Below, piece by piece: positions 1,408-47,748 of a DNA stretch of 64,000 nt. The notes beneath the pieces were generated by a model. It made no database searches. It was not told the origin of the DNA and saw only the letters and a list, made by a program, of their open reading frames with translations. The translations under genes were made by a program, and so were the position numbers. Where the stretch lies: contig LUVW01000011.1 of NCBI GenBank assembly GCA_001661515.1, positions 10,322 to 74,321 on the forward strand. Direction: 5' to 3'. How positions within the stretch are numbered: position 1 is the first letter of the stretch; the number at the start of each line of letters is the position of its first letter. The DNA comes from Capniomyces stellatus (taxonomy: Eukaryota; Kickxellomycota; Harpellomycetes; Harpellales; Legeriomycetaceae).

Positions 1408-1523
1408 TTTGTACTAGCAGCTGTTTTTTTTTTGTGTATTTGAGTTTGTTTTCAGTTACTATAATGGTTGTAAAATTGTTGTAGAAAGAATTTGTGCTTT
1501 TGGAAATGGCGAGCTACTAACTG

Positions 1524-2629: not shown

Positions 2630-2914
2630 CATATATTCTTCACAGTTCACAGAAAGAGGCAACATTAACCAAAAAAGTTCACTATGACTGTGCAAAACTG
2701 CTTTATACTAGCCCAACCGTTTACTAAATAAAAAAATATGTATCATAATCTATAATTAAAGTTGGCAATTTGATTATTCAGAGTCGTATTTGACATTTAT
2801 CCATTTGATCTGGCAACTGAATGCTTGCTAGCCTTCTACTGAAACAATGATCTAGTCTCCTTTACTAAAGAGTTAAAATGACGGTCACTGTGAAACACAC
2901 TTTACTCCCACATC
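2630..2914. repeat. protease 3'-flank repeat, copy R1
   Basis: About 285 bp, closely similar to 5390-5642 and 15790-16082. Shared landmarks are gactgtgcaaaactgcttta, cccaaccgtttactaaata, and the end tttactcccacatc. R1 stops exactly at the single N at 2915. In the other two copies the sequence runs on differently, so the fusion of R1 to the protease gene here is suspect. Confidence 0.7.
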
Positions 2915-3679: not shown

Positions 3680-3793
3680 TTTGTACTAACAGTTGTTGTT
3701 TTTGTGTATTTGAGAGTGTTTCCGGTTACTAGAATGGTTGTAAAGCTGTTGTAGACAGAGTCTGTGCTTTTGGAAATGATGTGCTACCAGCTG

Positions 3794-13424: not shown

Positions 13425-13425
13425 N
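13425..13425. other. single-N assembly join between FAS2 and protease copy B
   Basis: FAS2 coding sequence stops here and the protease coding sequence begins on the other side, both still in open frame. Neither gene end is natural. Confidence 0.85.
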
Positions 13426-13903
13426 TTATTTCACCCTTGTAGATCTTTGCTGGAGCAACAGCTCTCGACCTATACTCGTCTTTCAACCTGATCAGCGCTA
13501 TATCATTTCGGTCTGTGGTCTTTTCAAGTCCAGTATACCCCTCGTGAATAGTAATACGATCGACTGCAGCTCTATTTCCAATACTCCCACCACCAAACAT
13601 GCTCTCTGGGTTTTTTTCTCCAAGAACTACATATGCTCCATCTGATTCGTTAAAAAAAGTACCGTCATCTTTTCTGAAACAGTGTGCCGCAGTAAGCAAG
13701 TGCCTCTTTGAGATTAGTGTGGCGGCACAACCTTGATAAGAAAGTAAACCTGTATTTACATAAAGTTTTCCGATGGCAGAAAATGCACTGTAATCTGTAT
13801 CACTGCCTCCTACAATTCTTTTTTCCAATTTATTTGCGGGCACTGCTGATCCTGAAATTATCAAGGCTTGCATGATGAATACGGCTTGTAGCAAGATACG
13901 CAT
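13426..13903 (-). CDS. trypsin-fold protease paralogue B, C-terminal half missing
   Basis: About 160 codons of a secreted S1 protease. It has a signal peptide (MRILLQAVFIMQALIISGSA), Lys-Arg before IVGG, the catalytic His intact (LLTAAHCF) and Asp in DRNDIALIRL. The frame ends at the N at 13425, before the active-site Ser. It is very close to copy A, differing mainly after the activation site (SDTDYSAFSA versus NHANYRDFSA) and in having the His. The upstream promoter is cut off by the N at 13913. It is probably a real, functional gene whose remainder was lost in assembly. Confidence 0.75.
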
Positions 13904-13912
13904 TTTGTACTA

Positions 13913-19513: not shown

Positions 19514-21097
19514 TTACTTTTTACAATTTGAAACTTTTGTGCACTTGAATTTTGGTTTAACAATGGCTGCTTTTCCTGCTGCAGGAGCGAATACCAAGCT
19601 TTTAACAGCATATGCTTTCAGCTCGTAAGTTCGCTTGAGATTGTCATTAATATACATTCTAACTAACCCTTTGGATGACTTGATCTTGATACTATTTCTG
19701 ATAGCACGACTTATAACTCTGGATCGTTTATTAAGTCTGCTGTTTATTTTCTTGATTGAATTTTTGCCTGATGTTAGACCAAATCGAGTCTCAACAACCC
19801 CATTGGAATCCTTTAATCCTTTTTCAGATACCAACCAAACAATTAAATCTGAATCGCTGGAAACCTGTGCGCTAAACTCAAATTCTTGACCATCACAAGG
19901 GATGTTTATGCCCTTCATTGTTCTGTGTTTTTTATCATCTTTGCTGGCACTCAATGTGATGCTAGGACCAGTTAGCTCCAATGGACAAACTTTTCCATAT
20001 CCTGCGGATGGCGTTGTTGTGGCCTTTGTTGGCTTGACGCTGACAGACTTTGATCCATATTCTGTGGATGGTGTTGTTGTGGCCTTTGTTGGCTTGACGC
20101 TGACAGACTTTGATCCATATCCTGTGGATGGCGTTGAAACAGTTTTAGACTCAACAGAAGGCAGGGGTTTAACAAACTTTGGTGGAAGGGAGCAAGTTGG
20201 CGACTGATAATAACCCAAACAATTTGGACCAGTGCACATGATGTAGCTAGATAAAAAATCGTCCCAATAGCCATCCATTGACATGTATACATAAACAGTG
20301 TTGTTGGAATCACATGGACCATCGTCAGTTTTGATTACAGCAGTCTCCAATCCCAAGATACCATTACCTGGGGAAACAGTGTTGGTCATCATTAATACTG
20401 ACCCACTACCGCCAATGCATGATTTATTTTCCCCCTGCTGAGTCATGCAGAACACTTTCCTGTTTTTGAAATCCTCTGGATAATGCAAAGCGCACAAATC
20501 ATCTCTGGCCTTGTCAACGTTAGCTTTTCTGAAACTGTCACTTAATACATTGACATTTGGAACCTCACCAACCCACGCTTTGTATTTTTGGTTTCCCAAG
20601 AACTGGTCAAAGATTCCACCAACCTGTTTTCTGTACACATCAGTTGGACGCCCTGCTTGTGGTGTGAGGCATTTTTCAAATGTTAATATAGCCAGGTCAT
20701 CGGCAAATGGCTTGGTGTGTTTATACTTTGGATGGATTACTACATTGCTGACCCTGCTAATATAAGTGTCAGAGATTGAACTGGAGTCAAAACTGATACC
20801 AACTTTGATTTTTCCCCAGTTGGATTTATCAGCTGTACCTGATTCATGGAGACAATGTGCCGGTGTTATAAAGGTATCAAATGTAACCATAGCACCAAAA
20901 CATCTATAGTCATCCATTCCATCTACTTCAAAATATCCAATGCCCCACGACTCATTGAATGAACCAGAAGTGCCATTGAACTCGTTTGGGATCCCGTTCC
21001 CAAGATCTTTGCCTGTAAAAATATTGCCGCTTTGGGCATATACAGAGTTGATTGCAACAAGCAATATTGAAACGTTTTTATAGGTTTTGCTTGACAT
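19514..21097 (-). CDS. secreted trypsin-like protease homologue with repeat linker and C-terminal domain
   Basis: 527 aa, single exon. Signal peptide (MSSKTYKNVSILLVAINSVYA). The S1 fold covers about residues 30-290, with His in TPAHCLH and Asp in ADDLAILTF. The Ser region reads CIGGSGSVL instead of GDSGGP: the nucleophile is kept, but the Asp that normally salt-bridges to the new N-terminus, and the following Gly, are replaced. There is no normal IVGG activation site, so it would not be activated like trypsin. A linker of 20-residue repeats rich in Thr, Ser and Pro (60-bp DNA repeat) connects to about 160 residues with paired Cys that I do not recognise, possibly a binding module. Probably extracellular and of doubtful peptidase activity. 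Confidence 0.85.
   Translation of the reverse strand: MSSKTYKNVSILLVAINSVYAQSGNIFTGKDLGNGIPNEFNGTSGSFNESWGIGYFEVDGMDDYRCFGAMVTFDTFITPAHCLHESGTADKSNWGKIKVGISFDSSSISDTYISRVSNVVIHPKYKHTKPFADDLAILTFEKCLTPQAGRPTDVYRKQVGGIFDQFLGNQKYKAWVGEVPNVNVLSDSFRKANVDKARDDLCALHYPEDFKNRKVFCMTQQGENKSCIGGSGSVLMMTNTVSPGNGILGLETAVIKTDDGPCDSNNTVYVYMSMDGYWDDFLSSYIMCTGPNCLGYYQSPTCSLPPKFVKPLPSVESKTVSTPSTGYGSKSVSVKPTKATTTPSTEYGSKSVSVKPTKATTTPSAGYGKVCPLELTGPSITLSASKDDKKHRTMKGINIPCDGQEFEFSAQVSSDSDLIVWLVSEKGLKDSNGVVETRFGLTSGKNSIKKINSRLNKRSRVISRAIRNSIKIKSSKGLVRMYINDNLKRTYELKAYAVKSLVFAPAAGKAAIVKPKFKCTKVSNCKK
20013..20132. repeat. 60-bp tandem repeat, two full units plus a partial
   Basis: Two nearly identical 60-bp units encoding the Thr/Pro-rich linker of the protease homologue, with a partial third unit around 19990-20012. 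Confidence 0.9.
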
Positions 21098-24000
21098 TGT
21101 AGGTAAAGTAGTAAATGCTTGTTCTTATTTGATGAGTTTTATTTATTTTGCGTTTTAAATTGTACTGATGAGAAATGGGTGAGTAGGGTTTGTGAATTTT
21201 GTGAATGCTGTGGAATCACAATGTTCTGATGAGCTTCTTTTTATATCATCTCGAGACGAACAGCAAGAAAAGCCCTAACACTAATCTGCTTTTTCTTCAT
21301 ACACTGTTTGACGGAACCATATTAAGCTTGCTTGGGATAACACAATGTCTTTACTTCCTTTTAAGAGTCACCAACATAAATCGCTAATAATAGATCCATT
21401 GGTTTTTACAAATAAACAAAACCACAATTATCAAATATTTTACAAAATGATATATAACCTTTTAATACTTTTATGTCGCTATTGGAATACTATTAGAATA
21501 CTTTTATGTCGCTATTGGAATACTATTAGAATACTTTTATGTCGCTATTGGAATGCTATTAGAGTCACTTGCATCATTACTTTTAGCATAATTCGAATTA
21601 TAAGAGTCGTATACTTTTGCTAATGTAGCCGGTTAACATGCTATCACAACGTCGTAACCATACCAGTGGTATTTAATCCCAATCCGCTTTGTAAAATGTT
21701 TATTTTTAGATTTAAATCTTTGAAAAAGAAATCATGTAACAAGTTTTTGACAAACTGACTGGCAGTGGAATGGACTTCATCTTTGTGGTGTACTGATTGG
21801 AGATCCAAAAGTCAATAAAGTGATACCATTGCTCAAATTACGTTTAAAGTTGATTTAATGTTATGTAATTTTTTTAGCACTGGCATTGCGTTAACAAGTT
21901 TGGACCAAACCTTTTGAAAGATTTCGTTAGTTTGACCAAAAACGTGACCTTGGTTTGTTAAATTTTTAGCTTACTTAAGTAAGCTATATTCTCAAAAAAT
22001 AAAAACATTAGCGTGGTCAGGGCACTGGTACTTTGCAAACATAATTTTTTAAAGAAAAAAAGTTATTTGCAGGGGAATATAATAATTTGAAAATGACCTA
22101 AATATTCATAGTTGTAAAAAAAACTCCTCTCCATTAATTAACTCAAAAAACTAACCAACCCATTAGTATTGGTATTGGTCCACCTGTTGATGTTGGTACA
22201 CCTGTTGATGTTGAGAACCGTGTAATGTTTAAACAAATGAAAAGCAATTAGAATATTTTGTGGAAATAAGAGCGGTTAAAAGAGCGTGATTAGTAGTAAA
22301 ATATTCTGTGAATTGTAATTTACTCCGTCAGGACAAACTCTGTTGGGTATACGGAATGATAGTATCGGAAATATAGGTGTGTCTTCTTTGAAGACGACAA
22401 AAACATTGATAATTCAAACTGGCTAATATATTACTCTATCGTCTCTAGATTGGCCTTGCAAAGCTTTGCAAATCAAAGTTACATTGACTTAGCTAGTTGG
22501 AGAGCTTGATTTTCAAGTTTTAGAGTGAATAACATTGGTTGGTTAAATCGGGTTTGATGAATAACTTGCTACCACTATTCAGGTTGAAAAGAGCCTTGTT
22601 TGTACACACCCCTGAAGCAATTTATAATCAATGACTAATATCCAATAATTCAAAAGCAAAACACCATTATTGTACTTTTGCAGCCAACAGAACGCACTTT
22701 TTGCAGTTTCCGCAAGGTAAGTTTCCTTCCTGCTTTATATTTGGACTGGGCTGATAACGAATATTTCTTGGATCAAGTATATTTTTAACAGAATCTCTTA
22801 AATAAACACTGATTTTGTTTTATTTCAATAATATGAAAAGCAGGAGAGAATTATTTATAACCTCAACCGCCATTTAGTCCAACATTCATTCTGCGTATCT
22901 TTGACTCGTCAACCAAGACGTAACAGCAGTAGCAGGTTATACTACCACGTAGTATTGCAAATGAGCAAAACATGCAATTGCTAGATTGGTAGCTAATATA
23001 CAACACAAGAAGAGTTTTTTGGGGTTTTATAAAATAAGCAAAAAAATAAAATAAAGGGATTTGTCAACCTTTTACAATGAATTCTAGCTTGTAGCTAACT
23101 GTGTTTTATTTCAAAGAATGGTGAGACACACTATTGCACAATTCAAAATATTGTGACTTTTAAGGGATTGATAATGGTAAAAGCCAAAAACTGCAATTGT
23201 GTCTTGTTTATAAATTGAAAACACAGACACAATGAGCTTGAGATTAAAATTAACCTGATTGTTTAATAAAGTAAAGTAGCGTAAAAATGTATAATAAAAA
23301 TGGCTTTGAAGAAAATAATTGAAACAACAACTAATAACTAGACGATTGTATCGATTGAATAGAGGTGTTGAAATATAGGCTCCATGAAAAAAAATGAATT
23401 AAACGATACATTTCGCATTTGGAGAGTTGACAAATATGTTCATTATTGCTGATACTATTTCAAGGAAAGTAATAATATGGACTAAAATTAAGTTCTTAAC
23501 GCTCTGACTTGTGAAATAAGCCAAAAATAGCATTACTGGATTTATTTATGATATATCCTTTTTAAATGCGACTAATAGAATCCACATCCATTTTTAAAAA
23601 AAATAAAACAGACAAAAGAATATTTTTACTTTTTACTATCAACATAGCACAGTTTACAAGTTCTGCTCTGCCATTTTATTCGAGTTTTTCACAAAGTAAA
23701 AAGTCCCAAATTCGATACTCTAGAAATTGAAAAGTAAAAATAATAGTTATAGCAATAATAATAGTAATATAAATAATAATATAAATAATAATAATAATAG
23801 AATTAATACAAGCAATTGAAGCTGGAGCTTAAACAATTGATAATTAAAACGCAACTGATATTCTAAACTCAAAAAAAAACAATCAATTGTAATAAAGAGA
23901 AAACAAAAAACCAGTCAAAGTAAAGTAGCAATTTGAAAATCACATATTGCCTAAACCAAACCTCCTTATTACAGATTTTATGCCTTCCAAACAAGCTACC

Positions 24001-27873: not shown

Positions 27874-30800
27874 TTACAACTGATGCAAAATACCTGTCAA
27901 ATACGAGTACCCACATCCCCACCCAAGCTTTAACGCCGCCTGGATAGCTTTTGCACCACCATTTGAGCTTGGATTAGCACCAGACCTGACCAGCTCAACC
28001 AATACGTCATAATTTTTTCCTAAAACCGCCCAAAGTAGCGAAATGCTGTCAAACTTCTCGCAGTCCACGCCATGCTCTATTAACAGCTTAACAATGCACA
28101 AATGCCCCTTTAAGCATGAAAAATACAGCGACTTATTGTTCCTGAACCCAACATCAACTTTGTAAGTCAGCAGCGCCTTGACTGCATCGATTCTCCCATA
28201 CTTGCAAGCAAGCAAAAATGATAGGTTTACTTGGGCGCTGTTTCTTACACAGTAGTTGGCCGAGGCATCAAGAAATCCTAATTCTTTGATTGATAGCAGA
28301 AATATGTCTTTTTTTGCCTCAATTTTGCTCTTGCGCGCTTCAAGTCCAATATCAACTAAGTGCTTTAGTTTTTGAAGCATCAAATTTGCGCTATTGTTTC
28401 TTTTGGGCTCTAAACCAGTGTCATTTAAGCGCATCCCACACTCAACGATTGTATCAGATAAAAATAGAATGTTGTCCTTTATAAAAGCAAAATTATCACC
28501 AACACTGGAATTTGCGCTTCTTTCGAGATGCTCAAAAATACAGCCGAGCATAGCTGTGCCCTCCTTAACACATCTAGCATACATCGTTTCGCGCATGCCT
28601 GCGTATCTTTGGGTTAATGATGCTAAAGCGGTATGGATACCATCGACGCTATTGTTCTTACCTGATTTTATCAATAATTTAGAAACTACATGGTCATCTA
28701 AACCTTCTTCCGTTATTGTCATCTCTTTGCAATTCCTCATTAGCCTAGAGCTGCATTTATTAAGCTTTAGGCGTTTTCTCTTATTGCTTGTGCAGTCAAT
28801 AGGCATGCAACCTTTGAAGATCTCTTTAATTAGCGCATCATCGAGTAGTGCCCCATTTATTCCCATGTGGCCTTTTAAGGATTTGAGTAGACATTGTAAA
28901 CAATGTTTGTTTGCTGCGCCTGAAGAATCTGTATGTAGCAGTGCTTTGATCACCGGTATACACCCTATTCTAGCCGCCATCCTAATAGGCTCATCGTTAT
29001 TCACATGTCTATTTGCTCCATTCTCAAGCAATAACGACACCAATCTAGAGTTGCTTTTGCTAACAGCATTTAGGAGGAGTTGGCTGTTGTTTACTTGTAC
29101 ATTAGCGCCAAACCGGATCAACAGGTCTACAATCTGAATGTTGCTATAACGCACGGCATCTCTGAGAATACCTTCGTTGTCTACATGTACATTTGCACCG
29201 CTTGCTAAAAGCAGCTCTACAATTCTGCAATGCTGGTACTTTGTGGCTATTTTGAGCGGCTCGCTATTTTTGGCATGTATATCCGCACCAGCATCTATCA
29301 GAAGCTTAACAATTCTAAATCTTCCCCATCTACACGAATATCTTAAAGCCGCATTCCCTTTGGCTCTAATATTTGATCCGTGCTTTATCAACAGCTCCAC
29401 AAGCCTGATGTTTCCAATAAAGCAGGACATCAATAAAGCATCGCTATTGTCTACAACCTCAACTCCGCTCTTGATCAAATACTCCAACACTTTTATATTG
29501 CCACCTATACATGCACTAGTAACCGCGTAATTTCTTCTCAACGCCACCCCCTTCCCCAAATCACAAAAAAAATCCAGCACCTTCACCTTCCCACCCTTGC
29601 AGGCATTAATGATGACCTCCTTTTCATCACCTACTAAACTTGAGCCGGATTGTATCAACATTTTTGATATGTCAATGTTTCCTTGTAGCAAACTGGTCTT
29701 TAAAAGCAAATTTCCCAACATGTTGCCGTCTGCGCCATGCCTTATAACCAGCTTTATGACCTCTTCACCCGCGTTTATGGCTGCGCTGCATATTGAGGAT
29801 TTGTTTTTGCCGTGTATTTTTACACCATTTTGCAACAAAAGATTCACTATACTCAAATAACCATTGGTGATGGATGCTAGAATTGCCTTGTTATCGTCCC
29901 TGTTCACCTCCACGCCATTAAGTATCAGCAGCTCTGCTATATCCAAGTGGCCATTTGAACATGCATTTATCAATGGCTCACCGCCTTTAACATCCAGGTT
30001 AGCATTGCTGTTTATCAACGTTTTAGCAATATCGTAATATCCCTTTTTACACGCGATTCGTAGTGGCTCGCCGTCATTGATATCTATATCACACTCTCTT
30101 CCTATGAAAATGTTTACAAGCTCAAAATGATTTCCATTGCACGAGCTGAGTAAAAAGTGCGAGTAATCAATACCCAGGTCTTCCATTTTTTGCAATAAAA
30201 GCACAGCTACTGACACCAACCCATACTTGCTGCAGCAGTCCATTGCTTGGTATAGATCGTGGTAATCGAAGGAGGTAAAAGTAAACAGATATTCGACTGT
30301 TTCCAAGGTACCGTTTCTACATGCCCAATACAGCGTATGTGACTTGTGAAGCCTGACAAGGTCCCTATTCTCTAGCAATATGCTTACAATATCGTATCTA
30401 CTTCTCTCACTGCAGCTATACAAAGCGCTGATATAATCCTTTCTTGTTTTCAAACCTAAAGTAAGCAAAAGCTTGAACATATCTAGACTGTGATCCCTCA
30501 ATATTTGAGAAATCGTTGAGTCGCCCAATTTGTTTATATCCACTGCCTCGTGCGACTTGATCATGGTTATTCCATCAGTCACTGTAAACACTGACGCTGT
30601 GGTAACCAACTCACTATTTAGCACCCTGATTGAACTGGCATTAATCAAGATACTCACACACTCACTGTGGTTGTTTAAAATTGACAGTTTAATTGCTAAA
30701 GAGTGTGCAAGGTTGATATCTACAGCAGGCCTGACTAGGTATCTGTATCCATCTAGCCCACCATCATGTTCGCTACCTTGTATATTTTCTGCCCTAGCCT

Positions 30801-31212
30801 TGCCTTGTACTAGACCATTTTTGGTGTTTATTAGCTGAGAAGTGTTTGCTTTTGTATCAATAACTTTAAACGAGTGCAATACAACATCCAACACATCCTT
30901 CCAGCCTCTTTTACATGCTTCGTTGAGAACAACTTGGTCTCCTGAGCTACAATCTGCACCCTTGTTTAATAAAAGCTTTATCAAGTCTTTATTGTTCAGG
31001 AACTGGGGAAATATGCGTGGTATCCCAAAATCCAAATCAAACACATTTGACTTGCCAAACTTGTGCAACAAATAGCGTACCTTTACTGAAACTGCTAAGG
31101 ATATACTGTGGTTCGTTTTGTTTGTATACGACAGCTCGACATTTTGGGCAAAGATGAAAATGTTCTCTAGTACTTCAAGTGGAAGCGAGTCCAGCCTTGG
31201 GGGTTTTTTCAT
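27874..31212 (-). CDS. large ankyrin-repeat protein with F-box-like N-terminus
   Basis: 1112 aa, single exon. Residues 5-20 (RLDSLPLEVLENIFIFAQ) resemble the start of an F-box, suggesting recruitment to an SCF ubiquitin ligase. From about residue 70 there is a near-continuous array of degenerate 30-33-residue ankyrin repeats, with IVKLLIDAGADIHAKNSEPL as a clear example. A break at about 760-960 is basic and helical (including KRKRLKLNK, a possible nuclear signal), and further repeats follow to the end. Proteins with this layout form expanded families in several early-diverging fungi and probably select substrates through the repeats. The substrate cannot be read from sequence. Confidence 0.85.
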   Translation of the reverse strand: MKKPPRLDSLPLEVLENIFIFAQNVELSYTNKTNHSISLAVSVKVRYLLHKFGKSNVFDLDFGIPRIFPQFLNNKDLIKLLLNKGADCSSGDQVVLNEACKRGWKDVLDVVLHSFKVIDTKANTSQLINTKNGLVQGKARAENIQGSEHDGGLDGYRYLVRPAVDINLAHSLAIKLSILNNHSECVSILINASSIRVLNSELVTTASVFTVTDGITMIKSHEAVDINKLGDSTISQILRDHSLDMFKLLLTLGLKTRKDYISALYSCSERSRYDIVSILLENRDLVRLHKSHTLYWACRNGTLETVEYLFTFTSFDYHDLYQAMDCCSKYGLVSVAVLLLQKMEDLGIDYSHFLLSSCNGNHFELVNIFIGRECDIDINDGEPLRIACKKGYYDIAKTLINSNANLDVKGGEPLINACSNGHLDIAELLILNGVEVNRDDNKAILASITNGYLSIVNLLLQNGVKIHGKNKSSICSAAINAGEEVIKLVIRHGADGNMLGNLLLKTSLLQGNIDISKMLIQSGSSLVGDEKEVIINACKGGKVKVLDFFCDLGKGVALRRNYAVTSACIGGNIKVLEYLIKSGVEVVDNSDALLMSCFIGNIRLVELLIKHGSNIRAKGNAALRYSCRWGRFRIVKLLIDAGADIHAKNSEPLKIATKYQHCRIVELLLASGANVHVDNEGILRDAVRYSNIQIVDLLIRFGANVQVNNSQLLLNAVSKSNSRLVSLLLENGANRHVNNDEPIRMAARIGCIPVIKALLHTDSSGAANKHCLQCLLKSLKGHMGINGALLDDALIKEIFKGCMPIDCTSNKRKRLKLNKCSSRLMRNCKEMTITEEGLDDHVVSKLLIKSGKNNSVDGIHTALASLTQRYAGMRETMYARCVKEGTAMLGCIFEHLERSANSSVGDNFAFIKDNILFLSDTIVECGMRLNDTGLEPKRNNSANLMLQKLKHLVDIGLEARKSKIEAKKDIFLLSIKELGFLDASANYCVRNSAQVNLSFLLACKYGRIDAVKALLTYKVDVGFRNNKSLYFSCLKGHLCIVKLLIEHGVDCEKFDSISLLWAVLGKNYDVLVELVRSGANPSSNGGAKAIQAALKLGWGCGYSYLTGILHQL

Positions 31213-34200
31213 TTTTAAAGTATTGGTTTAATTGAAAATAAAAGCGCGTATATGTCTATTTTGATCTTTTTTTGTTAATACCATTTGTTATTTTTATCAA
31301 AGCTTTTGGTTATATTATAAATGCCGCAGTAATACATACTTATTCGAACTTTTCTAACAAAATTCCTGAAATTGGCTAGGAGGATAAACAAAAACAAATA
31401 CGCAAAACCGCAACATCCAAAGTTTTTATGAAGACTTGATTTCACTAAAAAAAAAGTGTTGTATTATATAAATGTATAATATGGCAAAAGGCTTTGAAAG
31501 TAGCATTAGCACTCGAAAAGTATCAAGTCAAAACACAAATCCTTGAGTATTCAATAAAACTACCAATTGCTCGCAACTTGAGCCCAAACACCCATTAAAA
31601 TTGTCAGAACCAATTGGTAGCTGAACGGTCTTATTTCCCCGCTTATTTAAAATATATCGACTATTAGTCTTGTCAAGAATACCAAGCACTCGTTTATTAG
31701 CGTTAATATTAACATTAATATTAATACACATGCTAATATGCTAATGTTAAAGCTAATGTTAAAGCTAATGTTAAAGCTAATACCAAAGCTAATGTTAACT
31801 CATGCTATTTGCACAAATGCATTGCACGAGTTGGTTTGTTAAATTTCTTATTCGGCCGTTCGAAAACAAATAAAAGTAAACAAAATTTGCATTACCAAAT
31901 TGGTATCAAAACTTCAGTTTAAAAATAAAGGGCTAGTGCATTGTAAAATTGTGATATTTATTACCACTATAAAGCATATAATTGCGCACTGAATGTTTGT
32001 AAAATTGTGGGTTCTGTAAACAAAACGGCATAAAGTGTCAAAACCCATAGAGTAGCTTATTATTTGACAATACAACTTTGCCTTCATTTGGCTTATTATT
32101 ATCTAATGGTGAAAAGGGGAGGTGACTAAAACCTTTTAAGCGTTGCCATCATGATTAAAATCATACTCACATTTTCAACTAATGAGCATTGGAACATTGG
32201 GACATTGAGCACCCACTACTTTTGGTACCTGTATCATGCTGCAATGCCCGTACAAAATTCTATAAAAAAAATAACAGTCTTACAAAGATGGTGTAAATGT
32301 TGTGGCATGGTGTCACTGTTTGGTATTGACGTGGTGATAAAAGATCCATCAATATCATATTAATAGATAGCTATATGAATAAGCATGGTGGTCAGACCAA
32401 CTTGGATGACAATATATACTGTGCCACCTCTGACAGTACTGGACATTGCTGGAATGTAAATTTAGATGAGTCACCTGGTTGCAAGCTTTGCATATGTTGG
32501 TGTTGCTTTAGAGTAATGTATTTGTTGTAAATGACAGGTTGTCTTGTGTTGGCTATGTTAAATGGCAGTGCTTTGAATAGAGTTTCAATAATTAGTTAAA
32601 TATTCCAGCCCGGCTGTTTTGCTGGGAATTGAAATGATAATTTAGTTTTAAACCCCAATTTTGGTAACACTAAGATTTAATGACCATTACTAGCCAACAG
32701 TAAAAGGAAAATAGAACCAGAAAGTAGAACCAGAAAGTAAAACCAGAAAGTAGGACTAGAAAATAGGGCTAGGCAATAAGACTAGTAAATAGGGTTATAA
32801 GATGAGATAAACGATTGCAAGTTAGCAAGAATCAGCGGAATGTTATATGTTCAAAAAGATGAATTGAAATGAAATACAGAATAGACGAGTAGTAGTAGTT
32901 AGTTAATAGTAAGAAAAGAAACTGGTAATAATGAATGGTTGAAGATGTAGAAAATGTAACTAGGTGAATAAGGGTTGACCTTTACCACGACCTTCATTGG
33001 ACAAACGGAAAGAAAGTATGAACCTGAAATGCAGATTATTAATCTAAAATGTTTATAAATTAACGGAATCAGACAGGATGAAAGATAAATAAATAATTGA
33101 ATGGCAAGTAGGGTTCGAAGGCGGCTTTTGTTTAAGCAAACAAGAAAGACAAACATAACAAAGTGAAATGGTAGGCCAAAATAATAGAGTTTGACATTTA
33201 AACAACAACCAAGTTTAAAAATAAATAAAATAAAGATAAACCCTATACAACAGCAAGAAACGTTTGCACTTGAATAACACAGTCAAGCAGGTTTAATGTA
33301 AATATATATAAAAAAAAAGTGGTGATGAGAAGAGTAGCCAATAGTATGGTGATAAACCATAGGATTATGTAATGTTGAAATCAAGTAGATTTAAAAGTAT
33401 TTAGGAATTACAAATCGCAAATAGTTTATAAACACCAAGCTCGAATTTGTAAGATAGTTGGAAAATTAAAACTAAAAAGAAAAAGCAAAAGGTAAAAAAA
33501 AAAATTAGGTTTGAAAAGTGGTGAAATGCAATAGAAAAAAATTGAAGAAATGTAGATGAAAACAACTAACGTTATTATGGGAGCAGAAACAATAGAAAAA
33601 AAAATGGAAAACCAATGCAATGCAGTAAAAGATAATCGATATTCAACGAGATTAACGTAATCCAATATTAACTTGGAATTGTATTATAGAGTATGAGTGA
33701 TAAAAAAAAAGAAAAAGATTCCAAAAATGTTGGATGTAAATCGGATTTTAGTATGACTAAAAGAGGGAAAGAGAAAGCGGTAAAGAGAAGCTGAAATTAG
33801 TAGAATTAAGCTGATGAATGAAGAAAAGGTGGAGAATAAATGGAGATTATTTGTAGCAAAATAAAAGATAGAATTTTACAATTGCCAACTAGTAGATTTG
33901 GCAAAGGTAATGGCATACCTTATTAAACCGTTTTTCTAAGCATACCTCAAACAAACAAAACAACCGTTTTATAAACATAAAGATATTTTTGCCTTTTAAT
34001 TTTAAAGGAAAACAAAAAGCAAAAACAAAAAAATAAAGTAGAATAGTTTGGTTATTATTAAAAGTTCTAGCCATTTCAACATATTCCACACCCTCTAAAC
34101 ATTCGTTTTATTCAAGTTGATACCAATACGGCAAAAAAATAAATCATCAGAGGTGATTTAAAGAATTGGTAGGAACCTTAACGCCAGTATCAAACCGAGA

Positions 34201-34515
34201 AGTACAATCAGCTTGTTGATTGGATACCGATAGACATAATAAATCAAGGCGGATAGCAAGAATTGAGAGAAGCTGGAATTCAAATAGAAGAGAAATACAT
34301 TCGAAAGTCGAAAGTGTGTAAAGATAATAGAGCAAAACAAGATCTCAATGTACCGATAGCCGTATATTTTTTTTTATATTCAAGTTTTGAAGCGAACAGA
34401 GAATTAAATAGAAATAAGCGAATAGTAGAAAGAATACAGCAGGGCTGAATTTATTTTATTGGGGTAGCGAAGATAAAGAAACTAGATACAAGTAAATAGC
34501 AGACAAGAAAAAGGA
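31213..34515. other. long intergenic region, no gene seen
   Basis: 3.3 kb. It holds a palindromic/tandem stretch of gctaatgttaaa-like units (about 31690-31800) and a degenerate 17-bp purine-rich repeat (about 32710-32800). The last kilobase before the Rax1-like gene is strongly purine-skewed on the plus strand. No convincing gene. Confidence 0.5.
31736..31798. repeat. 12-bp tandem repeat, imperfect
   Basis: Four to five units of taaagctaatgt beside an AT-rich partly self-complementary stretch (ttagcgttaatattaac). Confidence 0.7.
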
Positions 34516-36735
34516 ATGAATAAACAGAACAATGGTGGAAGTGGAGGTGGTGGAGGGGAGCAAATGGGTCAAGGGTTTGGGTATATTGATTTGAGCAACT
34601 ATACCTCGGATAGATCTCGGCATCAGGAGCTGAATAACAATAGCGAAGTGGACCAAGAAGCGATACTACTGGCAAAGATGGTGGTTGCAGATTTGGATGG
34701 AGAAATAGAGACACAGAATAGAGAGAATAACGGGAATTTGGGGGGAGATGGGCTGTCGTCTTCGGCGAGCAGTGTTAGTGGGGCCAACGAGGAGTACGAT
34801 AGGGGGTCATTCTACGACAACGGCTCGGTTACGCAGTTTTTCGATACGAGGCTTTGGAGGAGAATATCGAAAACGCTGCCAACATCAGTAAGGGATCCTT
34901 TGGACTTCAACGAGTTGGAGAGGGACGAGAAGGAGCGGGTCAAGATTAGGGGGAAGGGAGGCAAAGGGGGGCCTATGGGGCATGAAGGGGGGTCGGAAAG
35001 CAGCCTGGTTGGACATGGGAGAATTGAGTACAACAACAAGGTTGGAAAACCGATAGGGTTGAATATGAACAGGGTGATGAATGGGGGAAGGGGAGAGTTT
35101 GGAGATATAGAGAAGGGGGTTGGGGGGAACATGCTGGAGAATGGGCGGATTGTTCCAGGAGGGCTTACAGAGCAAGACTGGATATATCTGCAGGACCACA
35201 ACTTGCGGCATGGAGGACTACCAACGCTGGAGCAGGTACTCCGAAGAAAAACGTATGCACCGCTTTCGCTGCGAGACTTTGCGGTTCATTGTTCAGTGAG
35301 GCAGCCAGAAGCAAGGAAGTGGCTGGAGTTCTATATGGCAGCAGTGACACACGAAAAGATGTGTATTTCGTACCTGGGCAAGCAGCGAAACCTGGGCAAA
35401 TCGCTTCGGCCAAGAGACAAAAACTCGCAGAAAAGATCAGAGAAGAGGGGCGAGTACAATGACGGAGACAGCTCGCACTCAGGGTCAGAGAAGGGGTATG
35501 GAGGAGAACACGGGGGAACTGGCAAGATAAGAGGCGGCAGAAGAAGCAAGGCAAAGAGCGGAAGAAGAAACCTGTCAAGCGAAGAGCAAAAGGCCATTAT
35601 GAAGGAAGCGCTTCAGATCCAAAGCGCAGCCGAGTCGATTTTCCTGAGGTATTTCCGGGCAGCGCTGATCCCAAACAGCCAGAACGAGTGGGGAGACTCC
35701 AGCAAGGATATAGGGTGGCAGAGCCCAGGAGTCGGTGGGGGAGGAGGAGGAGGAGCAGGTGTAGGTGTAGGTGTAGGTGTAGGAGGAAGAGGAAGAGGTG
35801 GGTCGGAAAAGGGGAGAATGGACGAAAGCAAATCAAGAGGCGGGTTCCAGAGTCTTAGCGGAATAAAGCGGATGTTTAAGCAGCCAATAGAAACGCTGTC
35901 AAATGCACTAGCAGTAGGCGGGAAGCCAACAGTGAGGCTAGGACCAAACGGCCAAGATCCAAATGCACGGTTTATCCACATGGCAGACCCAGACAGCAGC
36001 TCAAGTAACAATGTAAGAGGAGGAGGAGGAGGAGGAGGAGGACAACTTCCATATGGATTTGGAATGGAGGGCGGGGATGGAATGAATTCAAATATGGGCA
36101 ACAAACGGTCTTCATACAAGAAACAAATCATATACTACATGCCATGGCCTCCAGAGATTCTGTCGAAGATCGAGATGCAGTTGTCAAGAGGAAATGCAAG
36201 CCTGGATCCACACCTGTTTTCTGAAGCAATCATGTATGCCTATGAGATCCTCGACGTGTACTACTTTACTGTCTTTTTGAGGGAGGGCACATCCAGAAAC
36301 GTCGCCCACGCACACGGCGTAATCCGCGTTGCCCTGGCCTGTCTACTCCTGCTCTTCGGGTTCACCTACCCACTGTCTCTCATTCTGATGGACTCCAACC
36401 CAATCACTCAGCGCATGTGGTGCATCATTCCCCTCATCGTTGGGTGGTGGAACATGGGTGTTGGGTTTAGCGGCGTTGACATCCTCCTGAGTCTCACCAG
36501 CAAGTATCAGTCACCAATGCCCAAAACCCAGACCGGGAAAAGTGGTGGCGGGTTTGGGTACCGGGGAACCAGCTGGAAAAACGCCTGGTTCTCAACAAGA
36601 GACAGCATTGACCCAACTGCATCCAAAATGGTCTACATCAACAGCCTCAAATGGTTTGGTATAAGCATGCTCTTTGCCCTAATCTCCTGTCTTATTCTCT
36701 GCCTAGTCCCAGGAACCATTCTTTACACCAACTAA
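34516..36735 (+). CDS. RAX1: Rax1-like RGS-domain membrane protein
   Basis: 739 aa, no introns. The long Gly/Asn-rich N-terminal part is low complexity. An RGS-type helical domain spans about residues 245-580 (LPTLEQVLRRKTYAPLS, RDFAVHCSV, ARKWLEFYMAAV, then SAESIFLRYF, and SEAIMYAYEILDVYYF at the end). It is split by two large Ser/Gly-rich insertions, including GVGVGVGV and an eight-Gly run. Three membrane segments follow (VALACLLLLFGFTYPLSLIL, IIPLIVGWWNMGVGF, ISMLFALISCLILCLVPG). This layout matches yeast Rax1, which marks bud-site/pole positions at the plasma membrane. Family assignment is by layout and motif; pole-marking function is inferred. Confidence 0.8.
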   Translation: MNKQNNGGSGGGGGEQMGQGFGYIDLSNYTSDRSRHQELNNNSEVDQEAILLAKMVVADLDGEIETQNRENNGNLGGDGLSSSASSVSGANEEYDRGSFYDNGSVTQFFDTRLWRRISKTLPTSVRDPLDFNELERDEKERVKIRGKGGKGGPMGHEGGSESSLVGHGRIEYNNKVGKPIGLNMNRVMNGGRGEFGDIEKGVGGNMLENGRIVPGGLTEQDWIYLQDHNLRHGGLPTLEQVLRRKTYAPLSLRDFAVHCSVRQPEARKWLEFYMAAVTHEKMCISYLGKQRNLGKSLRPRDKNSQKRSEKRGEYNDGDSSHSGSEKGYGGEHGGTGKIRGGRRSKAKSGRRNLSSEEQKAIMKEALQIQSAAESIFLRYFRAALIPNSQNEWGDSSKDIGWQSPGVGGGGGGGAGVGVGVGVGGRGRGGSEKGRMDESKSRGGFQSLSGIKRMFKQPIETLSNALAVGGKPTVRLGPNGQDPNARFIHMADPDSSSSNNVRGGGGGGGGQLPYGFGMEGGDGMNSNMGNKRSSYKKQIIYYMPWPPEILSKIEMQLSRGNASLDPHLFSEAIMYAYEILDVYYFTVFLREGTSRNVAHAHGVIRVALACLLLLFGFTYPLSLILMDSNPITQRMWCIIPLIVGWWNMGVGFSGVDILLSLTSKYQSPMPKTQTGKSGGGFGYRGTSWKNAWFSTRDSIDPTASKMVYINSLKWFGISMLFALISCLILCLVPGTILYTN

Positions 36736-37061: not shown

Positions 37062-39451
37062 TCATGACTCTTTGGGCAAAGAGCTGGCTGTCAATTTGGC
37101 AACTTGGTCCAGTTTGTCCAGTCTGTCCAACAGCAAAAGATGCAGCTCCTCAATCCTAGCAAACTCTCGGGCTAAATCTGCGCGGATCTTTGACCTCAGC
37201 CTACGGTCGCGCCTTTTGTTTTGCTGCCTCCTTCGAGTGGCTTTTTCAACCATAGGACTGCATGACAACGGCTTGGCTATCGACACACGCTTGCTTAGGC
37301 CTTCTATATGGAGGATGTTTGTATTGTTGTTTTTGTTGTTGTTGTTGTTGTGTGGGTACTCGTCCAAGTCGGCTGTGTTTCGGCGCGAGTTTTGCTGCGA
37401 ATGCGAGTTTGACGATACTGGCGCGTACCTTGTGTGTAGCTTGCTGGTGCCCATGTTGAATAGCTCGTATGTCTCAATGTTGCTTGCTTGGCTGTTGCGT
37501 GTGCGGTCTGGTTGGTTGATGTCCATCGAAATGGCCTGTGAGTGCTGTGAGTGCCGTGAGTGCTGTGATTGGCTATGACTATCTTCCACATTTTCGGCCG
37601 CCTTTCTGGCCTGGTATCGCCGAGCCTTCTCCCAGACCTTGGTAAAACTGCGGCCAACAATAATAGACGGCAGGGCAATGAGCAGAATTCCGCACAGCAT
37701 AGCAGGAACGCTGAGCAGCTTCCCAATCCATGTCAGCGGCACCATATCCCCATACCCTGTCGTGGTCAGCGTCACAATCATGTACCACGCAGCATTCGGA
37801 ATGCTGTTGAACTGGCTTGGCTCGCCGTCCTTGGTGAGAAAAACCTGCTTCTCGATGTTCCATGTGCCACGCTCAACAAAGTACAATAACATGCTGAACA
37901 CCAGAACCGTGATCATGATCAGAAACAATAACGCAAGCAAAGAGTTCTTTGACCGCCTCACTGCAACCATCAACACCTCAATCGACAGCTGCAGTAACGA
38001 CGTGTATTTATACGCACTGAACGTTCGGAATATCCTGAACACTCGGAGAATCGAAAACCGGTACTGGTACGACCCTTCGCCCCCAAATAACAGGTTCACG
38101 TAAAACGGAAATATTGCCAGAAAATCTATTATTGTAAGTGGCGCTACATTTTTTTCATAATAATAATAAAAATAAAGGTAAAGATCAGATTCATAACCCG
38201 TTATTAGTATGCTTTTATACCTTCTTTCTCTTTCTTTTTCTTTACTTTTTCTTTTCTATTATACATTATATATCACCTATTTATACTATTCCCTCAAGTT
38301 ACATTTTATAAACTTCCATAGAAACTCCATCCTTGAACTATGGACCACTACTCTTGACACAAACTCTACTGTAAACACCATCACTATAAAGTACTCTGCA
38401 ACCATCAACATCCCACCTCCATGCGCCGCCCGGATCGTTGGAACCGTTTCTATTGTTGACAATATTGCCCCAAACACTATAAGTATCGTCAACGTTACAC
38501 TCAAAACGAACGCGCTTCTGCTTGATCTTGGATCGTACAACAGCAAGTATAGCTTTTTTCTCCATATTTCCTAATTTCATCATTTTTCACCTGTCAGTTT
38601 TCGTGTTTTATTATTAGTGACAAGCCAGCCGCTATATCATACTTGTTCGTGTCACCATGTACAATATACACCCATATTTGCCTTACCTTCATCGAGTTGA
38701 TTTCATAGTATCGACCATGTCCAAGCCTTGCCCTCAGATGCTCTCCATCAGCTCTACCCGACAGACCTCTTTCCTCAGAAATCCCCCTTAACTCCTTAAT
38801 ATCCACATCCATACTACTTTCATCACTACTAAACAGAGCACTACTTTTCCGACGAAAACGCTTGTTTCTGTAGTGCCTCATTCTCTTTTCTCCTTCCTCC
38901 TCATCATCATACTCGCTCAGGCCACTCATATCGCTATCACTGTCACTGATCCCACTGCTGTTATCATACCCTCTGCCAGCCCGCTCTTTCACTCTATTTG
39001 ACACTCCTTCTTTGCTCCTATACCCGTCAAACTCCACTTGCCCAGCAACACCTCCAGACCCCAATCCCTTATCTCTCAACAACCTGCTCTTCGCTTGGCT
39101 GTCACCCCCATTGTATCTATTTCCGTTATTACTATCGCTACTATATTTCCTTAATTTACTTTGCCCACCCCATCTTCCTTGTGCCTCTTTAGATCCCCCA
39201 CCTACTCCAGAAGCAGGCCCCACTCCTCGACCCGTTACCCCACCACTCTGTTTCATCTCATTCTCTTTTGATTTCCCTGCCAAAGTTCTCCTACTCGCTA
39301 CCAAATCATCCCCATCTCCTATTGCTCCTTTATTCTCTTCCCCAAAGCTCCAACTCGTTCTACCCGCCCCACTTTCTGGAGCTTTGCTTGATGTTTTTGC
39401 TTCCCCGTTTATTTTTCTTGGTTTTTTATTTACTTCGTTCCCATTATTCAT
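37062..39451 (-). CDS. voltage-gated potassium channel (Kv-type), three exons
   Basis: Exons 39451-38687, 38570-38303 and 38143-37062 join in frame (GTAAGG/ATTAG and GTAACT/GTAG) into 704 aa. About 255 N-terminal residues are disordered and acidic/basic, with no T1 tetramerisation domain. S1-S3 follow (FVLSVTLTILIVFGAIL; AEYFIVMVFTVEFVSR; SPLTIIDFLAIFPFYV). S4 has arginines spaced RFSILRVFRIFR. S5, then the pore with TTTGYGD, the K+ selectivity filter. S6 reads ALPSIIVG where animal Kv channels have a PVP hinge. The C-terminal tail is Ser/Gln-rich and ends in a coiled segment (LLLLDRLDKLDQVAKL). It probably sits in the plasma membrane and sets membrane potential. Such channels are rare in Dikarya. 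Confidence 0.92.
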
Positions 39452-43782: not shown

Positions 43783-46700
43783 ATGAAAAGTAGCAAGGAT
43801 ACATCACTTGATAATGTCAGCTTATTAATAAGTTGTCTTCCAGAAATGACACCTGGGATAGTTGACGAAACGAGACACGAAAAGGTTATAACCGTACTCG
43901 AGTCTTTTTTGTTTGGAGGACATAAAAAAACCCCTGAACTTAGTGCGCAGTCTTGTAAATATAGTTTTGTCAAATGTAGTGAGAATAAAGGAAACGGTCA
44001 CATATCTGAACTCGCCGAAAAGAATGGAACAATTCAAGAACTGGAGCGTAAAATTAGCTTTTTAGAGAGTAACTCGGTTTACGATCAAGTAAAGGTAAGC
44101 ACGCTGGTACGCGGGATAGCTGTCTTAGACAAAACGAGGACAAGCGAGTGTTTAAAAAAAATCAATGAGTAGTAATAAGAGAGCCAGAACTTTCAAACTA
44201 CTGACTCAAGATAACAACTGTAAATTCAACATAGGCATGTTTAGGTCCAGAAAAAGACCACAGAGTTAGCGCAATGGCAATAAGAATACTTTGTATTTTA
44301 CTAGAGGCGTACCAAGTGGTGAAGGAGTACAAAGCAGCTAATGGGGGGAAATATGCGGATGCAAAAAGAGTCAAAACTACGTACGTGCCTACTTGGGAAC
44401 GAGTCTTTGGGCTGAAGAGGGAAATTGAAGACGATGGAATAGTTCTAGAATACGCTATTAATAGTGCGAATTCTACGCACTCTATATTGAGATATTCGGT
44501 TATAGGGCTTTTTGTGACCGCTGCTGACGACCAAACTCAGTTCAAAATGTAAATACAGACTCTTTTTTTCTCACCACAAATTCTAAACTATCATATTTAA
44601 AAGCGATTTAGTGTGTATATAAAACCCTAAATGGCGGATATAGTGGAAACGGTATTTACTCTCAGTTGGTTTATTGGCTATATACTAAAAATGGTTTGAA
44701 TTCGGCAATGCTGGTAGAATAAGTGAACGGGTGAAGTTGGAGAGCTATGTAAAAGATAGGATTGTCGATGAGAGCAGCTACGTGAGTACAAATAGCTTGA
44801 CTGATAACTTTGTGTTTTATTGGGCTGCTGGTGTGCGGCCTTTTGCGTTGAAGCGAATAGCAATACCATTGCTGGCCATTGAAGTTGGCTTAACTATGGT
44901 GTTTTTCTAGTTTTGGTGGGGGGTCAAACAAAGCGGCTATGAATAATAATTAAAAGTGTAAAAAAAAAAAAAAAACATATAGGTTAGAAAGAAGTCAGCT
45001 ATTTTGGTGGGCAAGATTATAGACAGATATGGTGAATCCGATTTGTATAGCGGCCTGAAAGCAGAGATTGGTGGATACTTGGTTGGAGCAGTTCAAAGAG
45101 TAAAAATTGACACGAATTTTGCTAAAGAGAGATGTTGTATAATGGAGTTGTTGGTCGAACTGCACATAAATCCCGCAAGCAAAGATTATGCACAGAATCT
45201 GGTAAGCCCGATTTCTAAAAACACGTCTACAAATGTGGCGGCGATTGGTGATTATTGTAAAGGCAGCTGTAAAAGAGGTATTTAGAAGAACAACTAATGT
45301 TGCTATCTGTGTGTAATCTAGGTTGAGGAGAATCTGGACAGAATTTTGATGATATTGAAACAGATAAAAGGCAATAGGATGGAGTCTGGCGTAGTCATTG
45401 ACTTAATACAGCTATATGTACAGTCCTGTACTAATAGCAAAAACAATAAAGAGACGGCCACCAATAAGAGTGATAGAACTCTCGAAGACTTGTACAAGAG
45501 CATCGTACTAGGATTGTTGGACTTGGAAAATGGAACTGGTGTGTTGGTGGCAAATAATACAATTGATGAGCAAATGCTAGTGATTGCTCTCAGATTTTTG
45601 AAAGTTATTGGACGTGCAGCACAGCCAAACATTGAGCAAATTGGGTCTAGGGAGACTTTCCAAGACTTTGGCATACTGCTTAGAAACGTTTTTAAATGTT
45701 TTTTGGCAAATTCCATCGACCTGCCGGAAATCTGTGACTTGAAGCGAGACAGAATGCACGTATTCGGCAAGGACAACTCGGCATCATATTTGAGAGTCCA
45801 GGGATTGTTTGAAAGTGTAAGTTGGACCTTCTCGAACTATAAAGTTAAAAAAAAAATTACTTGGTTTAAAAACGAAAAATAAAATAAAAGCAGAGGAACA
45901 TGTAACTCGGTCTTTGGTGCCACCTAACTATTTTTGTTTTTTACTCTTACTTTGTCCTGCTTTTTTATTTTTATCAGTTTTTAAGTGTTAACAGAGGGAA
46001 CCAGGCCAGGGCTGGTAGGGTTATGTCTGAAATAGCATCTACTCTTGGGCTATATGCGGTTGAGTTGAAGGTAACCTTAAGTCCGGGCTTTATTTCTGAC
46101 TTTAATACAATCTCAGAGACATCATCTTGCGTATAGTTGGTATCAAAGACGTAAATTGATCACCCCCTTTTTTCTTTTTGTTTCTGTATTTTTTTTGTTT
46201 TATTAAACTTTTACGAAATGTGCGTGTTGTATTGTATTGTATTGTATTTTGATTTATTAAGGACATCTCGATATTCAAGCTGCTAGTTGTTGCTATTGAA
46301 AATATAAAAATACCGCAGCAACAAAAACTACTGAACTCGTGTCTGGACTCATTTACGTACTTTGCCGACCAAGGCGGATGTTCTGTGCTGGACCCTGAAA
46401 AGTTGGTCTTGAAGGTGGGTGCCATCCAACTCATTTAGCCTAGTTCTAACTCAATTCGGTATAACTTGATATTTGATGGTCGATATGTGGCTGTATTATA
46501 CTTTATTGTATTTTAACTATCTTGGTTTGGCATGACATCGGATCTGTGGTTTCAACGCAATTTATTTAGGCAATACTGAGGATGATTGGTAGCTATAATT
46601 TCAAAATACAGCCGCTTTCTAGACTGATAAAAATATCAGTATCGCTGCTGGCCTCATCCATGTCGATGGACAATGAAGCTTTGAATATTTTTGAAAGGTC

Positions 46701-47748
46701 TTTGACATTGAGATTTTCTGATACAGAGTTTGAAGTTCGCGAGTTGGCTATTTCCTTTGTGTCAGAAATCGTGTCGATAAACCCCGAGTTTATATCCACA
46801 AATCTCTTGGAAAAAGCCCTTCAGTCGCTGGGTGATTCAGAGGCTGAGGTCCGCTCGGCAGTTGTAAAGCTGGGCATCTCTTGTCTTGGGTCGCGAAAAC
46901 ACTCTAGCCGATTACACAAACTCATTGCCGACACTTTTTGCAAACAGAGCTTGGCGAGTATTTTGAACGACGCAGATGGTCTGGTTCGCCAATCTGGATT
47001 GGAGTACCTAGTTGTCCTAATCGCAAATATGCCAAACGACATTGAAACTGTTTCAACAGTTCTCAACCAGCGCCTAATCAGATGCTTTGCCACTGACACC
47101 AACATTGACATCCGCATAAAGGCAATAGACCTTCTACACAAGCTTTCTGACTACCTTATACACACAGCGTTCGATTTCTCACCTGTTGACATGGCTAGGG
47201 ACTGCTCCTATCTGGACACCTTTATCAAGTGGGACATTCATATATTCCTGACAGAGTTTGTAAGTTGACTTTCCAATTGATATTTTGACATGATTTTACT
47301 TGTATCATTACACCAACCTTCTTGCTATTGCTTTAAATTATCCTAACAGCAACAACATGCTCGTAGCCCAGCACTACAACCACCCCCTCCCCTTCATCAA
47401 CCACCTCTAACCCTTAACCACTATACTTGATAGGTCAATGACTTTTCAAGAGTCGTGAGAAAGTCTGCGGCAGACTGTTTGGTCGCATTGCAGTCTACAA
47501 TACACTCGTATACCAAAGACCTCAGACACCCTGTAAATAGATCACCAAACGTACACAACACCAAAGCAATGGCGTACGTTGACTGCTTATCTATATCTAT
47601 TGACTCACTGGACTTTGAATCCCTAAACCACCAAAATAAACACGAGTCTCTGTATGGGGAGATATTCGATTCTAAGGAATTCTACTTAGACCTGATGTTT
47701 GAGTCGTCAACCAGGAATACCGGAAACAACATACTGGAATGCTATTGA
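43783..47748 (+). CDS. BRAT1: BRAT1-like HEAT-repeat protein, nine exons
   Basis: Exons 43783-44094, 44235-44548, 44718-44898, 44983-45201, 45322-45816, 45978-46070, 46262-46414, 46570-47259 and 47434-47748 join in frame to 923 aa; human BRAT1 is about 820. All introns start GT and end AG; the third has a weak donor (gtgttt). The protein is helical throughout. The best matches to BRAT1 are in the C-terminal half: FEVRELAISFVSEI (HEAT), the VNDFSRVVRKSAADCL helix pair, and above all the last residues ILECY. Human BRAT1 ends in a Cys-Tyr tail reported to plug the active site of the Integrator nuclease INTS11. This protein therefore probably binds an INTS9/INTS11-type module in the cytoplasm. 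The assignment rests on motif recall, not a search. Confidence 0.75.

What the first reader, a model, noticed from the sequence alone, without database searches (positions are those of the whole stretch)
43783..47748. BRAT1-like protein in a fungus, with the Integrator-plugging Cys-Tyr tail
Nine exons join in frame to a 923-aa helical protein whose last HEAT segments resemble BRAT1 and which ends in ILECY. Human BRAT1 ends in EADCY, and that tail has been reported to insert into the INTS11 active site. BRAT1 is usually treated as an animal gene, and Integrator is absent from Dikarya. A conserved tail at the very C-terminus points to the same chaperone/inhibitor mechanism in an early-diverging fungus.
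Basis: partly seen in the sequence, partly recalled or inferred. Interest (0 to 1): 0.82.

Follow-up and report, generated by a model that had tools for sequence, protein, structure and literature searches.

The report
Likely BRAT1 in a gut fungus
A fungus related to insect-gut fungi carries a gene that is probably the counterpart of animal BRAT1, a helper protein whose last two amino acids are thought to plug an RNA-cutting enzyme, which would make this plug older than animals.

Summary
In detail: nine exons at 43783-47748 (+) join to a 923-aa HEAT-repeat protein ending ILECY. Human BRAT1 ends EADCY, fly BRAT1 SDCY. A C-terminus-anchored tail profile from fly and six mammals, without the fungal row, gives the fungal tail 29.3: 0 of 3000 shuffles and none of 534 other open-frame ends reach it. 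Unanchored, the tail match is not significant. The same genome encodes INTS11, INTS9, INTS4, INTS2 and INTS3; its INTS11 is closest to Zancudomyces and Smittium, Harpellales fungi.

Against: HEAT similarity is not BRAT1-specific. INTS4 outscores the fungal protein on a BRAT1 HEAT profile, and its median score against 55 BRAT1s matches that of other HEAT proteins. Membership rests mainly on the terminal Cys-Tyr and on the partners being present. I rate BRAT1 orthology about 0.8. The INTS11 plug is inferred; the structural papers were not held. New member of a known kind.

The parts
43783..44094 (+). exon 1 (residues 1-104)
   Evidence: open frame, GTAAGC donor
44235..44548 (+). exon 2
   Evidence: open frame, ATAG acceptor
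44718..44898 (+). exon 3; 3' end uncertain (weak donor GTGTTT, alternative at 44901)
44983..45201 (+). exon 4; 5' end uncertain (alternative acceptor 44987)
45322..45816 (+). exon 5
45978..46070 (+). exon 6
46262..46414 (+). exon 7 (weak donor GTGGGT)
46570..47259 (+). exon 8, residues 590-819: HEAT repeats; residues 643-864 (running into exon 9) align locally with human BRAT1 514-750
   Evidence: Pfam HEAT, best stretch 758-784; local alignment; all-helical single-sequence model, low confidence
47434..47748 (+). exon 9, residues 820-923 and stop: last HEAT-like helices and C-terminal tail
47605..47625 (+). SLDFESL (residues 877-883), 40 residues before the end; human SLDLEGL and fly TIDLDQL lie 37 before theirs
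   Evidence: the match upstream of CY alone is modest (29 of 2000 shuffles with CY fixed reach the score)
47683..47697 (+). YLDLM (residues 903-907), placed against human LLQDML and fly LLDDIL
   Evidence: hand reading; loose
47737..47748 (+). terminal Glu-Cys-Tyr codons and stop: the presumed INTS11-plugging tail

Best explanation
The gene is the BRAT1 orthologue of a Harpellales-related (Kickxellomycota) fungus. As in animals, the protein would be a HEAT-repeat assembly factor that holds newly made INTS9-INTS11, covers the heterodimer before Integrator assembly, and puts its C-terminal Cys-Tyr into the INTS11 metallo-beta-lactamase site, with the penultimate cysteine next to the zinc ions, keeping the nuclease silent until INTS4 and the rest of Integrator take over. 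Shown here: the gene model, the HEAT repeats, the ECY end fitting the anchored fly+mammal tail profile, and the presence of INTS11 with its zinc-binding motifs, INTS9, INTS4, INTS2 and INTS3 in the same genome. Inferred: orthology of the HEAT part, binding, the plug, and the chaperone role.
For: Tail profile from fly + 6 mammals, no fungal row, anchored at the C-terminus: fungal 29.3 over all 47 columns; 0 of 3000 shuffles reach it; first of 535 open-frame ends, next 13.5; with CY fixed 29 of 2000 shuffles reach it. Anchored to a single (bonobo) tail: 18 of 1500 shuffles reach the score. Chance of a [DE]CY end from residue frequencies of long open frames about 5e-5. 120 of 120 listed BRAT1 proteins end [EQV]ADCY; fly BRAT1 in PDB 8uic ends SDCY. 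Fungal vs human BRAT1 C-terminal part score 86, vs bonobo BRAT1 85, z about 10-11, confined to residues after 600; fungal vs INTS4 z 2.9. Fly+mammal HEAT profile: fungal 17.0 bits, 10 own-genome control ORFs at most 7.5. The one fungal-fly segment (637-660) lies in the same repeat register as fungal-bonobo at the two positions sampled in both. INTS11 best match is INTS11 (1.7e-216), not CPSF73 (3.5e-104); motifs HFHLDH, GHVLG, TGDYN, SAHAD, LVHGE present. INTS9, INTS4, INTS2, INTS3.
Against: phmmer of the 923 aa against the PDB: 0 hits at E <= 10 although BRAT1 is there. BLASTP to human BRAT1 498-821 gave E 2e-4 in one run and 0.25 in another with different settings. Unanchored local alignment of the last 73 fungal and last 60 human residues: 548 of 2000 shuffles reach it. 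Mammal-only profile: fungal 0.7 bits, below a control at 1.1. INTS4 scores 26.8 bits on the BRAT1 HEAT profile against 17.0 for the fungal protein. Against 55 BRAT1 proteins the fungal local score has median 62, maximum 88; three HEAT controls have medians 53, 65 and 68 (maxima 60, 79, 91) and INTS4 65 (maximum 104). Profile of the post-HEAT part: nothing. Fungal vs fly C-terminal half z 0.8, where bonobo vs fly has z 15.0. Residues 1-600 show no similarity. Bonobo BRAT1 against the own genome: nothing at E <= 10. No relative found with residues 500-923 among 7977 scored candidates. The strict human+fly tail motif does not match (Phe for Leu, Glu for Asp).
Confidence: 0.78

Rival explanations
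1. It is an unrelated HEAT-repeat scaffold whose C-terminus happens to read ECY.
For: HEAT similarity to BRAT1 is not above that of other HEAT proteins; the exon-8 model resembles many HEAT proteins; nothing is detectable in residues 1-600; the unanchored tail match is not significant.
Against: A [DE]CY end has a chance of about 5e-5 per protein, and the anchored tail profile score is reached by 0 of 3000 shuffles and none of 534 other open-frame ends.
Confidence: 0.17
2. It is INTS4, the HEAT subunit of the Integrator cleavage module, or a duplicate of it.
For: INTS4 is a HEAT protein of similar length (963 aa in human). The Foldseek list of the poor exon-8 model holds 8rc4 chain d at rank 49; 8rc4 is among the entries with INTS4, and that chain d is INTS4 is my inference.
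Against: A separate INTS4 lies on contig C57 with collinear exon matches, one of 59% identity. Fungal vs INTS4 z 2.9 only. The INTS4_C family is not among the 8 Pfam matches.
Confidence: 0.03
3. It is a BRAT1-like factor that plugs CPSF73 or another metallo-beta-lactamase nuclease rather than INTS11.
For: CPSF73, of the same enzyme family, is also present.
Against: In the animal structures BRAT1 shares entries with INTS11 (8uib, 8r22) and INTS9 (8r22); INTS11 is present and well conserved here.
Confidence: 0.05

Closest known systems
Human BRAT1 (PDB 8uib, 8r22; named integrator complex assembly factor BRAT1 in some NCBI records)
   Same: HEAT repeats in the C-terminal half, SLDLEGL 37 residues before the end (40 in the fungus for SLDFESL), C-terminal acidic-Cys-Tyr
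   Different: 923 aa against 821 aa; no detectable similarity in the first 600 residues (bonobo sequence); Glu for Asp and Phe for Leu in the tail; 22-23% identity where aligned
Drosophila BRAT1 (FI02071p, PDB 8uic chain T, 974 aa)
   Same: C-terminal ...TIDLDQL...SLLDDIL...SDCY arrangement; EVR[DE] HEAT segment in the same register
   Different: direct local alignment to the fungal protein is not significant (z 0.8)
INTS4
   Same: HEAT repeats that match the BRAT1 HEAT profile; from recall part of the cleavage module with INTS9-INTS11
   Different: human INTS4 does not end in Cys-Tyr (sequence matched over its full length in the PDB); a separate INTS4 gene is in this genome

Membership tests
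BRAT1 | HEAT-repeat protein of 800-1000 aa | tested here: met
   923 aa, Pfam HEAT 1.9e-8
BRAT1 | C-terminal acidic-Cys-Tyr carboxyl end | tested here: met
   ends ECY; human, 120 of 120 listed BRAT1 proteins and fly end DCY; anchored profile 0 of 3000 shuffles
BRAT1 | tail elements upstream of Cys-Tyr ([ST][LI]DL[DE]xL and LLxDxL) | tested here: inconclusive
   29 of 2000 shuffles with CY fixed reach the score; unanchored local match not significant, 548 of 2000; strict human+fly motif not matched, loosened motif matched
BRAT1 | sequence homology over the HEAT region beyond that of HEAT proteins in general | tested here: inconclusive
   above 10 own-genome control ORFs but below INTS4, and not above controls on median score
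BRAT1 | N-terminal helical region homologous to animal BRAT1 | tested here: inconclusive
   no similarity of residues 1-600 to bonobo BRAT1; fly and mammals themselves barely match there (5.1, -3.5 and 3.2 bits)
BRAT1 | INTS9 and INTS11 encoded in the same genome | tested here: met
BRAT1 | binds INTS9-INTS11 with the tail in the INTS11 active site | not testable with these tools
   no complex modelling; structural papers not held
BRAT1 | WDR73 partner in the genome | not tested
INTS4 | INTS4 C-terminal domain (PF25458) | tested here: not met
   not among the 8 Pfam matches at E <= 10; PF25458 was also not found anywhere in the own genome exon by exon, where INTS4 is present, so the family may simply be too diverged here

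The most novel reading that the evidence does not exclude
The BRAT1 plug of INTS11 by a C-terminal cysteine is not an animal invention but part of the ancestral Integrator pathway, present before fungi and animals split and kept in fungal lineages that retain Integrator.
Probability: 0.68. Interest if true: 0.65.

Novelty: new member of a known kind. Interest (0 to 1): 0.52.

Why it matters
A 2022 review states that Integrator is restricted to metazoans (PMC9006982, passage). Here a fungus holds INTS2, 3, 4, 9 and 11, and probably the assembly factor BRAT1 with its tail. If true, the inhibitory tail has been kept since before the split of fungi and animals, which argues that it is functionally important; the few residues still shared would show what it needs. 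It would also offer a fungus with a 24.5-Mb genome for comparative study of a human neurodevelopmental disease gene.

Tried and rejected
Protein search with residues 500-923: none of 7977 scored candidates at E <= 1. phmmer of the protein against the PDB: none at E <= 10. Mammal-only BRAT1 profile: fungal not above a HEAT control. Unanchored local alignment of the tails: 548 of 2000 shuffles reach it. AlphaFold of exon 8 alone: pLDDT 55.8, Foldseek generic HEAT with no match at E <= 0.001, BRAT1 rank 34; not usable either way. Post-HEAT profile by local HMM: nothing. Bonobo BRAT1 (P0008) against the own genome: nothing at E <= 10; the tool itself says an empty answer shows nothing here. Searches in the own genome for INTS1 (PF12432 none; PF22928 4 matches, all below cut-off), INTS13, INTS4_C and INTS15 gave no accepted match; in four of these five no control genome rang and in the fifth one rang below cut-off, so they do not show absence. 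INTS4 as identity of the window gene: rejected because a separate INTS4 exists. The ten control ORFs include four opposite-strand frames and one duplicate, so about five are real HEAT proteins; one search used three of them for the comparison with 55 BRAT1s. P0008, used as the reference mammal, is bonobo BRAT1, not human. The loosened tail motif was fitted to admit the fungal letters and is not an independent test.

Full report
What is there. The junction between exons 3 and 4 is uncertain by a codon or so. Exon 9 alone sets the C-terminus, NNILECY. Of 8 Pfam families listed at E <= 10 only HEAT passes its cut-off (1.9e-8). The window lies on contig 3 of an unnamed 24.5-Mb genome of 59 contigs.

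Which organism. The INTS11 of the same genome was searched against 5.8 billion proteins; the best 120 of 7432 hits are listed. The best is Zancudomyces culisetae (66%), followed by Smittium mucronatum, S. simulii and S. culicis, then Martensiomyces and Coemansia. Zancudomyces is Harpellales, Kickxellomycota; that Harpellales live in insect guts is recalled. So the host is an early-diverging fungus. By my reading none of the 118 named rows is a Dikarya species; that is a list of best hits, not a test of absence.

Is Integrator present. Three Beta-Casp matches were found. L010 is INTS11: E 1.7e-216 to human INTS11 against 3.5e-104 to CPSF73, with the zinc-binding motifs in place. L009 is CPSF73. 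L011 carries a divergent Beta-Casp domain and is CPSF100-like by exclusion only. With human INTS9 as query the top two matches are the CPSF73 and INTS11 genes, but two further exon matches on contig 24 (41% identity each) lie in no other Beta-Casp gene found here; on that locus INTS9 183-237 and 289-346 match in order (E 2e-9 and 4e-7). INTS4 matches lie in order on contig 57 (139-471 of human INTS4, the outermost weak). INTS2 (E 1.1e-39) and INTS3 (E 1.2e-31) pass their Pfam cut-offs. A 2022 review says Integrator is restricted to metazoans (PMC9006982, passages), and PMC9418311 calls it conserved across metazoans (passage). Public annotation already names INTS11 in many early-diverging fungi, so Integrator in fungi is not itself my discovery.

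Is it BRAT1: the tail. Human BRAT1 ends LQGDEADCY. All 120 proteins listed (of 710 hits) end [EQV]ADCY; these are isoforms and close species, so they are not 120 independent cases. Fly BRAT1 (8uic chain T) ends ENMISDCY, with TIDLDQL and SLLDDIL at the positions of human SLDLEGL and SLLQDML. The fungal end reads SLDFESL-(19)-YLDLMF-(12)-ECY. A profile from fly and six mammals, with no fungal row, anchored at the carboxyl end, gives the fungal tail 29.3 over all 47 columns. None of 3000 shuffles reaches this, and the next best of 535 open-frame ends in the window and loci scores 13.5. Most of that comes from the last residues: with CY held fixed, 29 of 2000 shuffles reach the score. Against the bonobo tail alone, anchored, 18 of 1500 shuffles reach the score; without anchoring, the human and fungal tails match no better than chance (548 of 2000). 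A [DE]CY end is expected about once in 20,000 proteins from residue frequencies of long open frames here. A motif loosened to admit the fungal letters is met by 106 of 120 listed BRAT1s and by fly, and by 0 of 200,000 shuffles with CY fixed; the strict human+fly motif is not met.

Is it BRAT1: the HEAT part. Residues 643-864 align with human BRAT1 514-750 in one collinear stretch, score 86 against a shuffle mean of 36.1 and maximum of 52 in 300. A fly+mammal HEAT profile gives 17.0 bits, while the own-genome controls reach at most 7.5. But INTS4 gets 26.8 bits on that profile. Against 55 BRAT1 proteins of 801-829 aa the fungal median is 62, and three other HEAT proteins score medians of 53 to 68 and INTS4 65. 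A mammal-only profile fails, the part after the HEAT repeats is not found by a local profile, and the first 600 residues show nothing. Fly and mammals themselves match by only 38 bits with a ten-sequence profile, though their direct alignment is clear (z 15.0); BRAT1 evolves fast and weak similarity is expected. I therefore treat the HEAT evidence as compatible, not as proof. The exon-8 structure model was too poor to help.

What it does. [quoted passage not shown] PDB entry 8r22 holds BRAT1 with INTS11 and INTS9 and is titled INTS9-INTS11-BRAT1-WDR73 complex. Given the shared end and the partners, the most likely role is the same: to hold and silence INTS11 before assembly. Shown: gene, tail, partners. 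Inferred: orthology of the body, binding, plug, chaperone role.

Novelty. Searches of the paper library for BRAT1 with fungi, and for Integrator with fungi or early-diverging lineages, listed no report of a fungal BRAT1 (listings only). One search returned four papers, three of them on plant bromodomain proteins including the unrelated Arabidopsis BRAT1. The library lacks most subscription journals, and I could not see whether annotated fungal proteins already carry the name. I file it as a new member of a known kind, with orthology at about 0.8.

Noticed in passing
window 37065-38255, minus strand: Voltage-gated potassium channel-like exon with a TTTGYGD filter (Pfam Ion_trans 1.5e-21, Ion_trans_2 2e-13). 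Kv-type channels are, from recall, unusual in fungi.
   Followed up: partly
window 514-1413, 2885-3685, 13394-13909 and 19517-21124, minus strand: Several trypsin-like serine protease genes in one region; two of them tested by Pfam Trypsin (4e-26 for 514-1413, 6.5e-8 for 19517-21124), the other two read only from their similarity.
   Followed up: partly
window 8074-13425, minus strand: 1783-aa open frame that reads, from recall, like a fungal fatty acid synthase alpha subunit; its translation starts with X, and X also occurs in the nearby protease frames 2885-3685 and 13394-13909, so the assembly seems to hold unknown bases there.
   Followed up: no
window 27877-31227, minus strand: Single 1117-aa open frame made largely of ankyrin repeats (Ank_2 1.5e-68).
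   Followed up: partly
window 34486-36732, plus strand: 749-aa open frame with a glycine-rich part and hydrophobic segments but no Pfam family at E <= 0.001.
   Followed up: no
L011 (G000 contig 2): CPSF100-like Beta-Casp gene inside a 3268-aa open frame rich in Gly and Ser inserts; the very long frame is odd.
   Followed up: no
HEAT profile comparison: Human INTS4 matches a BRAT1 (fly+mammal) HEAT profile at 26.8 bits, above every other HEAT protein tried; BRAT1 and INTS4 may share ancestry.
   Followed up: no
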